From: Synechococcus sp. UW179A
GTDB lineage: Bacteria; Cyanobacteriota; Cyanobacteriia; PCC-6307; Cyanobiaceae
DNA length: 64,000 nt
Reading direction: 5' to 3'
NCBI RefSeq assembly: GCF_900473965.1
Contig: NZ_UCNJ01000018.1
Coordinates: forward strand, 186,001-250,000
The translations under genes and the position numbers were made by a program. Shown piece after piece: positions 40,824 through 59,619 of this stretch (within the stretch, counting starts at the first letter, position 1; the number at the start of each line of letters is the position of its first letter). The notes under the pieces are model-generated. The model was not told where the DNA came from. It ran no database searches and saw only the letters and a program-made list of their open reading frames with translations.

Positions 40824-41032
40824 GGAGCCGGTTTCACTACTCCTACGCTAGCGAGGGCGTCGAGCCTGGCTACCCCACTAAATGTAGTGTTAACTACCCT
40901 CAAGGGTTTGCACCAGCCCAGGGATAGCGCCTTAGCCGCCATCAAAAATCTACTTACGCACTAAAAACGCTCAAAGATCTCGTCAACAAGCCTGAGAGCA
41001 TCCGTAAACCAAGCAAGGCATGGCTGAATCAC

Positions 41033-41105
<73 letters not shown>

Positions 41106-41127
41106 ATCAAAAGTCATTATGGGGTTT

Positions 41128-41510
41128 GAAAGCAGGAGAGGTGATCGCAACCGAAGACCAGCCTCGTGCTGAGCTGCGGTTGAGGAAAGTCCGGGCTCCC
41201 CGATGGCCAGGCTTGCTGGGTAACGCCCAGTGCGGGTGACCGTGAGGAGAGTGCCACAGAAATACACCGCCGATGGCCGGTTCGCCGGCACAGGCAAGGG
41301 TGCAAGGGTGCGGTAAGAGCGCACCAGCAGCATCGAGAGGTGCTGGCTAGGTAAACCCCGGCCGGGAGCAAGGCCAAGGAACGACGACTGGCCATCTGTC
41401 CCGTTCCGATGTGTGAGCCGCTAGAGGCCGCCGGAGACGACGGTCCCAGATAGATGATTGCCCCCTTCCCTCGGGAAGGAGAACAGAACCCGGCTTACGA
41501 CCTGCTTTCA
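41128..41510 (+). ncRNA. rnpB: RNase P RNA (class A)
   Basis: The catalytic RNA of RNase P. The 5' GAAAGCAGG (41129-41137) pairs with the 3' CCTGCTTTC (41501-41509) as helix P1. The conserved GAGGAAAGTCCGGGC block, CACAGAAA(T)A, GGTAAGAGCGCACCAG and AGGTAAACCCC in the middle, and the ACAGAACCCGGCTTA end block are all present. Length about 380 nt fits cyanobacteria. The start and end are set by the P1 pairing. Confidence 0.95.
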
Positions 41511-41586
41511 CCAAACCACCACGCAAAGAGTCGGGTCTTTCAGACCCACGCCAGTGGTGACGTCCCAGGGCTCTGACTGGGCTCAA

Positions 41587-42150
41587 AAAGATTCAAACTG
41601 TCAACCGCCTAAGCAAAACGCAGGCAAGCTGATTCCCACAAAAAAGCGGAATCCCTGCCCGATCTGCGGAGATAGATAGATCAGGTCGATGCCGGACGAA
41701 ACGCGACGACGCGGTTTTGCTCTGCGCTTAATTAGGGCGATTCAGTCCGGACAATTGATTCGATCTCCGTAGCCGATGGCGGCGGTTGGACCCTCTACAA
41801 GCGTGGAGACCTCTGGAATACATTCGCGCCAGAGCGGGCGAAAACCACCCGATGTCGAGCGCCAGCATCGAAACCTGTCGTAACAGCGCCAGCTCCCTCT
41901 AGAGCCAGCATCGAAGCCCGGCATCAGGCATTCTGCCCTGCTGGCGCGCCAGTCCTTCCACACCGATGACGCTGCTGATCTGACCCGCACAGGGTTCACA
42001 CACAAGCAGATCCATCAGATGGGTGCGAAGATCGTGACCAAGGGGCTGAAGTTGCCCGAGCCCCCGCGTTCTACAGGAGCTCTGGTCGGGAAGGTTCGCC
42101 AACACGACTGGCTATCTGGTTATCACTCGCGACTAAGAAAGACGCATCAC
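41587..42150 (+). pseudogene. Decayed phage/plasmid-type primase (zinc finger + DUF3854-like N-terminus), frameshifted
   Basis: Three frames together spell one ancestral protein. The first reads TKKRNPCPICGDR and hits TAG at 41677-41679. There GATA is present twice (GATAGATAGATCA); dropping one copy restores reading into SGRCRTKRDDAVLLCA (to 41731), giving a CPIC...CR...LLC zinc-finger pattern. A second frame open from 41736 reads GDSVRTIDSISVADGGGW and continues to about 41970 (RASIEARHQAFC). A third (41884 onward) carries LLARQSFHTDDAADLTRTG and FTHKQIHQMG, like the RADLxxRGLxxxQI helix of DUF3854 primases. At least three frame breaks, so non-functional. The family call is from motif memory, not a search. 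It lies directly behind rnpB/tRNA-Arg. Confidence 0.6.
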
Positions 42151-42381
42151 TGCTGTGCAGCTACTACGTCCATGAGACAAGACGTATCGCTGGCTGAAGC
42201 TCATACCTGCCCCGCGGCACTCCCCTCAAAAACCATCTAAACAAAAGAGTTATTATATTTTTGATGATTTTTTTATCTTGCAATCTAAGGCTGGATGATC
42301 AACCCATGAAGGGCACTTTGCTCATTATCGAAAGTGTTGCACGCATCTATTCTTGTAATTATTTATTATTCAATCACTTGA
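42151..42381. other. Non-coding, AT-rich stretch
   Basis: After the primase remnant the sequence drifts from GC-rich to strongly AT-rich at about 42240 (a TTTTTGATGATTTTTTTATC run). The last part of one primase-like frame stays open to 42240 but no longer resembles protein I know. No RNA, repeat or promoter could be supported. It is a boundary between the decayed element and the sulfotransferase segment. Confidence 0.5.
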
Positions 42382-42624
42382 CCAAAATCTGAATTTCCAC
42401 TGACTGACCTTCGAAAATTCAGTGCTACCGCCTATCCACATTCTATCCACACTGCTCCAAATCTTGGATTTGAACTTGATCCAACACACTCGGCCAGGAC
42501 GCTAATCTATCTACGACAAACAGCTGGATACAATTCGCTTGAGTCTTTTAGTCCAACATTAAAGGCTAAAGCTCTGATAAAATACAAAAGACCTACCTGC
42601 AGTTCTTTAGCGCTGAAGATATGA
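42382..42624 (+). other. 80-codon open frame without a start, overlapping the next gene as ATGA
   Basis: The frame opens after a TGA at 42379-42381 and reads to the TGA at 42622-42624, overlapping the sulfotransferase ATG. It lacks any ATG; CTG/TTG starts only. The translation (GFELDPTHSARTLIY, YNSLESFSPTLKAKAL) looks protein-like and the ATGA overlap is what a truncated upstream partner gene would leave. No family is recognised. It may be the 3' remnant of a gene, or chance. Confidence 0.25.
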
Positions 42625-43148
42625 AATATTTTGGAATTGGGCTTCAGAGAACAGGCACGGCAAGCCTATGCAAGGCGTTTGAACTATTGGGCTTTAAGTC
42701 TTGCCACGGCGACTACGGCCGATTTCCTGGCTCCCTATCCATGAAGGATGCTATTTATAATCAATATGATATGTTTGCCGACACTCCTTATTCTATACTC
42801 TACGACAAGCTAGATCTATATTTCCCAAATTCTAAATTTATTTACACTTCCCGTAATGTCGATCAGTGGACCAGAAGCGTCGAAAAGCTGTTTGCAATCA
42901 ACAACCAATTTTTATCGATGCCGAATATAGCAATGCACCACGTGCTGATCTATGGTCAGCCAGTATTCAATGCTGAGATAGCTAAGTCAGTTTTCCTAAA
43001 GCATCAATCTGACGTCAGAGAATATTTTAGAGATAAAAAAAATTTTATAGAGATCGACCTTGACAATTCATTCGGATGGGGACCGCTATGCGAATTTACT
43101 GGCAGAAATATTCCTGATGCTGGGTTCCCATGGATAAATCAGCTTTGA
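42621..43148 (+). CDS. Small sulfotransferase-family protein
   Basis: 175 residues from ATG 42621. GIGLQRTGTASL (5-16) is the P-loop for the PAPS 5' end. IYTSRNVDQWTRSV (about 74-87) is the 3'-phosphate-binding segment with the conserved Arg and Ser. It ends in FTGRNIPDAGFPW, like the C-terminus of many short bacterial sulfotransferases. Shorter than typical (200-300) but seemingly complete. Very AT-rich compared with the rnc and glgP regions. It lies beside a primase remnant and a decayed relative at 43301-43447, so it is probably imported. Acceptor unknown. Confidence 0.78.
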   Translation: MKYFGIGLQRTGTASLCKAFELLGFKSCHGDYGRFPGSLSMKDAIYNQYDMFADTPYSILYDKLDLYFPNSKFIYTSRNVDQWTRSVEKLFAINNQFLSMPNIAMHHVLIYGQPVFNAEIAKSVFLKHQSDVREYFRDKKNFIEIDLDNSFGWGPLCEFTGRNIPDAGFPWINQL

Positions 43149-43300
43149 TTAATTATGAAAATATATTAAGATTCAACCCATCTTTAACGCAAATATTCGA
43201 ATTAGCGTGATTCACCAATCCGACCTAGCCTTGGTTAGCAATCAATCTTTTCTTTTACTTGGAAGACTTTTGTCAACGCTTCAGCTTGCACTATTGATAT

Positions 43301-43447
43301 GAGAAAAACAGTCCTGCTAATGATTGGGTTGCCCGCGTTTCACATGTGCGCAAAAAATTTGAAGAAGATTTCCCAGTTCCTCTTCTCATTGACGACTCCA
43401 ATGACTCAGAATAGAAAATCGCCAATTTCCTGACAGAAACTCTCTAA
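43301..43447 (+). pseudogene. C-terminal remnant of a second sulfotransferase-like gene
   Basis: The frame reads EKNSPANDWVARVSHVRKKF, then FEEDFPVPLLIDDSNDSE, a TAG at 43412-43414, then KIANFLTETL before TAA (43445-43447). It aligns with the C-terminus of the intact neighbour: HVRKKFEED to DVREYFRDK, LLIDDSND to FIEIDLDNS, and KIANFLT to LCEFTG. No N-terminal part or start codon is found upstream. The remaining parts of 43149-43686 are AT-rich and hold nothing else I can support. Confidence 0.5.
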
Positions 43448-43686
43448 ATTTCGCGCAACAACGGCTTGAATATAGCTGAAAGCAACGCAACAACTGGCTT
43501 GGGCTGATCAGCAATCACTTTTCAAACGCTATAAACTATTTGCCAACTAAGAAACAATCTTCTTACTTAAGTTTTTTATATAGACAGAACCGGGCTTACA
43601 GCTAACGTTCATACACTTAAGAACCACAATTCGAGCCATCAGCCTAGATTTAGGAAAAGTATTTTCGAAGAAACTGCTCAGGGCAC

Positions 43687-44388
43687 ATGAGCCAAGAACC
43701 ACGGCCACTGCAGCAGCTCTGGGACGTGTTCAATCAGTCCGCCAAGACCCTTGGGCAGGCCGACCTTGCCTTGTTGCAGGAAGCGCTCACCCACACCTCC
43801 AGTGGCCTGAACCCTCATCACGAGCAGCTGGAATTTCTCGGCGATGCGGTGCTGCGTCTCAGCGCCAGTGAATTCATCGCCTCCGCCTATCCACAGATGC
43901 AAGTGGGCGAACGCTCCAGCCTGAGGGCCCAGCTGGTGAGCGATCGCTGGCTGGCAGAGCTGGGCGCCAACATCGAGATCGAGCGCTGGTGGCAGATCGG
44001 CCCCAAAGCCAGTGGCGACGCCACTGCGGCAGCCACCATCCGCGCAGAACTCAGCGAAGCGTTGATCGGCGCGCTGTACAGGATCAACGGTCTGGTAGGA
44101 GTGCAGCAATGGCTGACACCCCACTGGCAGCGCAGCGCTGAGGCGGTTCTCTCCGACCCGCACCGCGGCAACTACAAATCCTCCCTGCAGGAGTGGAGTC
44201 AGGGTGAAGGCCTGGGCCTGCCCACCTACAGCAGCGAAGAGATGAGCCAACGCCATGGTGACCCGCGCCGCTTTCGCTGCAGCGTGACCCTGCCGCCGCA
44301 GCTGAAAGCGGAAGGATGGGGCCGCTCACGGCGTGACGCCGAACAACAAGCCGCGCGCGCCGCCCTAGATCAGCTCACTGGCAGCTGA
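43687..44388 (+). CDS. rnc: Ribonuclease III
   Basis: Cleaves double-stranded RNA in rRNA maturation and regulation. 233 residues: the catalytic signature LEFLGDAVL is at 48-56, further acidic residues around SEALIGALY (about 125) complete the active site, and a C-terminal dsRNA-binding domain (about 160-230) carries SLQEWSQGEG and GRSRRDAEQQAARAAL. ATG 43687. The last 19 nt overlap the 3' end of the convergent potassium-channel gene. Confidence 0.94.
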   Translation: MSQEPRPLQQLWDVFNQSAKTLGQADLALLQEALTHTSSGLNPHHEQLEFLGDAVLRLSASEFIASAYPQMQVGERSSLRAQLVSDRWLAELGANIEIERWWQIGPKASGDATAAATIRAELSEALIGALYRINGLVGVQQWLTPHWQRSAEAVLSDPHRGNYKSSLQEWSQGEGLGLPTYSSEEMSQRHGDPRRFRCSVTLPPQLKAEGWGRSRRDAEQQAARAALDQLTGS

Positions 44389-58033: not shown

Positions 58034-59482
<1,449 letters not shown>

Positions 59483-59490
59483 TCACATTG

Positions 59491-59587
59491 GTCACTTCCC
59501 TATCGCCGGAATGACCCGGATCAGGTTCAGAGGGTGTGATCTCAGCCAAAAGGATCGAGAACGATCCAAGGCACCCCTAGTGGTGTC
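59491..59587 (-). promoter_or_regulatory. TPP riboswitch (THI box)
   Basis: On the minus strand the leader reads CACTAGGGGTGCCTTGG, a variable AT/GC hairpin (GGATCGTTCTCGATCC), then GGCTGAGATCACACCCT, CTGAACCTGATCCGGGTCA and GCGATAGGGAAGTG, the complete conserved THI-box order. It ends about 55 nt before the thiC ATG, suggesting control of translation initiation or of a short attenuator. Confidence 0.95.
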
Positions 59588-59619
59588 CAATTACTAGCAA
59601 CGCCGTTGAGAACACACCG

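What the first reader, a model, noticed from the sequence alone, without database searches (positions are those of the whole stretch)
41587..43447. Scar of an integrative element beside tRNA-Arg and rnpB
Directly after rnpB is a primase-like reading frame broken at three or more points, including a visible GATA tandem duplication (GATAGATAGATCA at about 41669-41681) that causes the first frameshift. It is followed by an AT-rich segment with an imported-looking sulfotransferase and remnants. In marine picocyanobacteria, tRNA-targeting integrative elements carry such primases. The composition switches abruptly at about 42240 and returns at about 43680.
Basis: partly seen in the sequence, partly recalled or inferred. 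Interest (0 to 1): 0.6.

Follow-up and report, generated by a model that had tools for sequence, protein, structure and literature searches.

The report
Decayed mobile element behind rnpB
Behind the RNase P RNA gene of this marine cyanobacterium lie the decayed remains of a mobile DNA element, and close relatives with better-preserved copies show that such elements insert precisely into the 3' end of that essential RNA gene, not into the neighbouring transfer-RNA gene.

Summary
Between rnpB (ends 41513) and rnc (starts 43687) the window has 2,173 bp that are absent from close relatives, whose gap is 24 bp. The left part is a broken replication-protein frame: a frameshift-aware alignment to a relative's intact protein scores 107, against a maximum of 52 in shuffles, with four frameshifts. 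The right part is AT-rich (39% GC) and carries one intact sulfotransferase.

The target is not tRNA-Arg, whose 3' end faces away and whose flank is undisturbed. It is the 3' end of rnpB. The nearest relative (G017) holds a complete ~19.4-kb element there, with a DUF3854 replication protein, a tyrosine recombinase with its catalytic motifs, and a perfect 24-bp copy of the rnpB 3' end at its far border. G039 holds a 7.8-kb version with a perfect 21-bp repeat; its left-end gene is the window pseudogene's best match. G014 and G012 hold remnants. In the window only the left junction is intact; the right repeat is lost or reduced to a 15/16 match.

RNase P RNA as an attachment site was not found in the papers searched. 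The recombinase's nearest relatives sit beside tmRNA.

The parts
41031..41106 (-). tRNA-Arg(CCT); neighbour, not the target
   Evidence: ARAGORN; its 3' end and left flank are undisturbed in relatives
41128..41513 (+). rnpB, RNase P RNA, whole; host gene of the attachment site
   Evidence: Rfam RF00010, full-length match
41487..41510 (+). attL core (inferred): the 24-bp rnpB 3' end that is duplicated at the two borders of the G017 element
   Evidence: perfect 24-bp repeat in G017, perfect 21-bp repeat in G039; single copy in the window's genome
41514..41606 (+). conserved left end of the element, with a hairpin (about 41517-41559) and the motif AACTGTCAACC (41596-41606)
   Evidence: 93% identical to G012 over 46 bp, 72% to G017 over 96 columns; alignment with G014 and G017; motif also near the right end of the G017 element; folds
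41518..42236 (+). replication-protein (primase-like, zinc-finger) pseudogene, at least 4 frameshifts and several stops
   Evidence: frameshift-aware alignment 41518-42010; joined pieces to 42236; frames
42225..43675 (.). AT-rich segment, GC 0.39, presumed cargo
   Evidence: GC breakpoints
42621..43148 (+). intact 175-aa sulfotransferase ORF
   Evidence: Pfam PF17784, E 1.6e-31; PDB relatives; 36% best relative in the family
43584..43599 (+). possible remnant of the right repeat, 15/16 match to the rnpB 3' region; suggestive only
   Evidence: 2 of 1000 shuffles of the whole gap and 0 of 1000 of its last 200 bp reach the score
43668..43686 (+). retained native flank between the lost right repeat and rnc
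   Evidence: 90-96% identical to the empty sites of G001 and G003 and to the sequence behind attR in G017
43687..44388 (+). rnc, right-hand neighbour
   Evidence: 233-aa ORF, 85-91% identical protein at the same place in the closest relatives

Best explanation
The 41514-43668 segment is the decayed, internally deleted remnant of an integrative element that inserted by site-specific recombination into the 3' end of rnpB. Mechanism (inferred): a tyrosine recombinase pairs a ~21-24-bp copy of the rnpB 3' end on the circular element with the chromosomal rnpB 3' end; the crossover leaves rnpB whole at the left (attL) and a second copy of the core at the right, next to rnc (attR). The element carries a replication protein at its left end and cargo to the right. 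Shown: the direct repeats, the empty sites, the recombinase and the replication gene in G017; the same layout without a recombinase in G039; the homologous left end and pseudogene in the window. Inferred: that this recombinase acts on these repeats, and that the window copy lost its recombinase, most of its replication gene and its right repeat by deletion and decay. The AT-rich sulfotransferase segment is probably its cargo but could be a later arrival.
For: Left end homologous to elements at the same junction; pseudogene best matched by the gene at the same place in G039; complete G017 element with recombinase and perfect 24-bp repeat, followed by the empty-site sequence; G039 perfect 21-bp repeat; rnpB 3' end present twice beside rnc only in these two of 400 family genomes; shared ORFs between G017 and G039; remnants in G014 and G012; empty sites; native flank retained in the window.
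Against: The window has no clean right repeat and its genome has no relative of the G017 recombinase. Only one genome carries the recombinase at this site. Most of the longer rnpB-rnc gaps in other genomes hold unrelated genes without repeats. The joined pseudogene pieces were chosen by eye, although the shuffle test does not depend on them.
Confidence: 0.85

Rival explanations
1. One reading: a tRNA-targeting element that entered at tRNA-Arg(CCT).
For: tRNA-Arg lies about 400 bp away, and tRNA genes are the known targets of tycheposons (PMC10872708).
Against: The tRNA 3' end faces away and rnpB lies between it and the scar; the flank beyond the tRNA 3' end is colinear in relatives; the repeats copy rnpB, not the tRNA.
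Confidence: 0.03
2. The rnpB-rnc gap is only a tolerant intergenic spot that collects foreign DNA by homologous or illegitimate recombination; the broken gene drifted in that way, without site-specific insertion.
For: No recombinase and no clean right repeat in the window; many repeat-free insertions at this place, such as the metalloprotease genes of six genomes.
Against: The window's left end and pseudogene are homologous to repeat-bounded elements at the same junction.
Confidence: 0.1
3. Two events: a rnpB-targeting element left the pseudogene, and the AT-rich sulfotransferase segment came separately, later, removing the right repeat.
For: Sharp GC step at 42225, where the pseudogene ends; no relative of the sulfotransferase in the other rnpB elements examined.
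Against: The G012 and G014 elements also carry surface-modification cargo behind their left ends, so cargo of this sort is expected within the element.
Confidence: 0.3

Closest known systems
Tycheposons of Prochlorococcus and relatives (Hackl et al. 2023, paper not held; described in PMC10872708)
   Same: Cargo-carrying integrative elements of picocyanobacteria with a tyrosine recombinase at a conserved RNA gene, of 4-200 kb; the G017 element fits in size, recombinase and cargo.
   Different: Tycheposons are described at seven tRNA genes; here the gene is rnpB. The window copy is a remnant without a recombinase.
[quoted passage not shown] Islander/TIGER, cited in PMC12884075)
   Same: Insertion at the 3' end of a structural RNA gene, with the gene restored by the element's own copy of that end.
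   Different: The RNA gene is RNase P RNA; the recombinase is only 30-38% identical to its tmRNA-adjacent relatives.
Phage satellites such as PICMIs (PMC10803314, title and abstract only)
   Same: Small integrative elements of marine bacteria with integrase and replication genes.
   Different: No packaging or capsid-hijacking gene was recognised; the G017 element carries an 8-kb gene for a large secreted-type protein instead.

Membership tests
Tycheposon | Tyrosine recombinase in the element | tested here: not met
   Window: none, and none related in its genome. The G017 element meets it (PF00589, E 2.6e-28).
Tycheposon | Insertion at a tRNA gene | tested here: not met
   The repeats copy the rnpB 3' end; the tRNA-Arg flank is undisturbed.
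Tycheposon | Cargo genes of variable kind | tested here: met
   Sulfotransferase in the window; methyltransferase, NeuB, cytidylyltransferase in G014 and G012.
Site-specific integrative element (general) | Direct repeats of the target's end at both borders | tested here: inconclusive
   Perfect in G017 and G039, partial in G014; in the window only the left copy is intact.
Site-specific integrative element (general) | Empty site in relatives | tested here: met
   24-bp gap in G001 and G003, matching the sequence behind the right repeat in G017.
DUF3854 replication protein (PF12965) | Match to the Pfam model | tested here: inconclusive
   Met by G017; the window's fragment gave no Pfam match, nor did the G039 homologue, and the genome search had no ringing control.
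Phage satellite | Packaging or capsid-hijacking genes | tested here: inconclusive
   In G017 a 114-aa ORF matches a phage family of unknown function (phrog_34910, E 6e-11) and a 294-aa ORF a phage topoisomerase family; no recognised packaging gene.

The most novel reading that the evidence does not exclude
Marine Synechococcus host a family of mobile elements that use the RNase P RNA gene as attachment site, with a recombinase related to tmRNA-associated ones, and that place a hairpin (followed by a T-run in G014 and G012, so terminator-like) directly behind the restored rnpB, so that the essential RNA is still ended correctly after insertion.
Probability: 0.55. Interest if true: 0.6.

Novelty: new variant of a known kind. 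Interest (0 to 1): 0.47.

Why it matters
tRNA and tmRNA genes are the textbook landing sites for integrative elements. An essential ribozyme gene as a landing site extends that rule to another structured RNA with a conserved 3' end, gives a fixed place in any picocyanobacterial genome to look for mobile elements and their cargo, and points to a naturally site-specific recombinase that might be useful in cyanobacteria. For the window itself it explains an otherwise puzzling patch of broken genes.

Tried and rejected
tRNA-Arg as target: rejected (orientation, intact left flank, rnpB repeats). Viral contigs searched with the G017 recombinase and with its replication protein: no relatives. The rnpB 3'-end core in viral contigs, as a sign of attP: none. 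Recombinase in genome contigs: one short weak match in Sphingomonas, not used; in phage records only integrases at about 31% or less. Direct repeats of the tmRNA gene end near five of the related recombinases: none found, so those are described only as adjacent to tmRNA. DUF3854 in the window's genome: no match, but no control genome rang. Sulfotransferase in phage records: none; one viral contig at 37%. Literature on rnpB as an integration site: nothing relevant in eight searches; the primary tycheposon paper is not held and the TIGER tables were not readable, so a precedent there is possible. A structure prediction of the G039 protein was not attempted because its locus came from a tool outside the stated rule.

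Full report
What is there. The window lies in a marine Synechococcus-type genome (G000, 3.06 Mb). On the plus strand rnpB ends at 41513 and rnc starts at 43687; tRNA-Arg(CCT) sits left of rnpB on the minus strand.

Broken gene. The three forward frames of 41514-42240 show fragments of one protein containing '...NPCPICGD', interrupted at the GATA duplication and at further points. A frameshift-tolerant alignment to the intact protein found in G039 scores 107 over 41518-42010 with four frameshifts; 60 dinucleotide shuffles reach at most 52 and the reverse strand 43. A search of 300 family genomes with the joined fragments returns G039 as the best match outside the genome itself, E 3.3e-11; weaker matches are zinc-finger domains of other, mostly replication-type proteins (the naming is mine, from the sequences). 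The joining of fragments was guided by eye, so the shuffle test carries the weight. 'Primase' is a fair working name from the zinc-finger and toprim-like pattern, but the G039 protein matches no Pfam or PHROGs family.

Synteny. Of 40 genomes read across rnpB-rnc, the window's included, 22 have a gap of 130 bp or less, 17 a gap of 0.9-19.4 kb, and one has no rnc within about 34 kb. In G001 and G003 the site is empty (24 bp). Left of tRNA-Arg the sequence is colinear in the six relatives checked. So the variable site is rnpB-rnc, and its left edge is the rnpB 3' end.

The better-preserved elements. G017, the closest relative (93% nucleotide identity over rnc and downstream genes), holds 19.4 kb here: a 1233-aa DUF3854 protein starting at the rnpB junction, an 8-kb gene for a large secreted-type protein, several small ORFs, a phage-topoisomerase-like ORF, a 369-aa tyrosine recombinase with its catalytic motifs and an 83-aa ORF, and then a perfect 24-bp copy of the rnpB 3' end followed by the sequence that follows rnpB in empty genomes. 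G039 holds 7.8 kb with a perfect 21-bp repeat directly before rnc, a replication-type protein at the left and three ORFs shared with G017, but no recombinase. Among 400 family genomes only these two have the rnpB 3' 20-mer twice at this place (one further, fragmented genome has it on two contigs). G014 has a broken version of the G017 replication gene, other cargo and a partial right repeat; G012 has the same left end as the window, a piece of the G017 giant protein and sialic-acid-type genes.

The window compared with these. Its left end is 72% identical to that of G017 over 96 columns and 93% to that of G012 over 46 bp, including the hairpin (shared with G012) and the AACTGTCAACC motif (shared with G017 and, with one change, G014). 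At the right, about 19 bp of native flank remain before rnc. The right repeat is missing from its expected place; a 15/16 match to the rnpB 3' region lies about 70 bp further in, a score reached by 2 of 1000 shuffles. I take it as suggestive only. The window's replication gene is of the G039 type, not the G017 type, so the two sister genomes probably received different elements at the same site.

How it works. By analogy with other tyrosine-recombinase islands in RNA genes (established knowledge; Williams 2002 as cited in PMC12884075), the element carries a copy of the rnpB 3' end, so insertion restores rnpB; the window's rnpB is whole. The element's hairpin then lies directly behind rnpB. In G012 and G014 it is more stable than shuffles (z -4.4 and -3.7) and is followed by a T-run, which would make a terminator; in the window and in G017 the fold is not significant. 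That role is inference. The recombinase's nearest relatives in the family lie beside tmRNA in 17 of 20 loci scanned, at 30-38% identity, but I found no repeats of the tmRNA end in the five loci checked, so a tmRNA-targeting ancestry is a lead only.

Known or new. The parts are of a known kind, tycheposon-like islands. The target is what differs: tycheposons are described at seven tRNA genes (PMC10872708), and no paper found in the searchable library reports rnpB as a target. The primary tycheposon paper and the TIGER tables could not be read, so I claim a new variant and not a first. The window copy alone would be an ordinary scar; its value is that it leads to the rnpB site.

Noticed in passing
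L033, L035, L037, L038, L039, L044 (rnpB-rnc gaps): In these genomes the rnpB-rnc gap holds a large metalloprotease/RTX-type gene on the opposite strand, without rnpB repeats or a recombinase; apparently an inherited occupant of the same spot.
   Followed up: partly
L053 and L074 (G027): rnc is not found within about 34 kb behind rnpB and no second rnpB 3' end exists in the genome; the neighbourhood is rearranged or holds a very large insertion.
   Followed up: no
L078-L096: A family of tyrosine recombinases lies directly beside the (permuted) tmRNA gene in many picocyanobacteria; 17 of 20 scanned.
   Followed up: partly
41596-41606; G017 element near both ends: The motif AACTGTCAACC occurs inside the left end and again about 60 bp inside the right repeat of G017; possibly a recombinase arm site, or coding at the left end.
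   Followed up: partly
59480-59588: TPP riboswitch on the minus strand (63.1 bits); ordinary.
   Followed up: no
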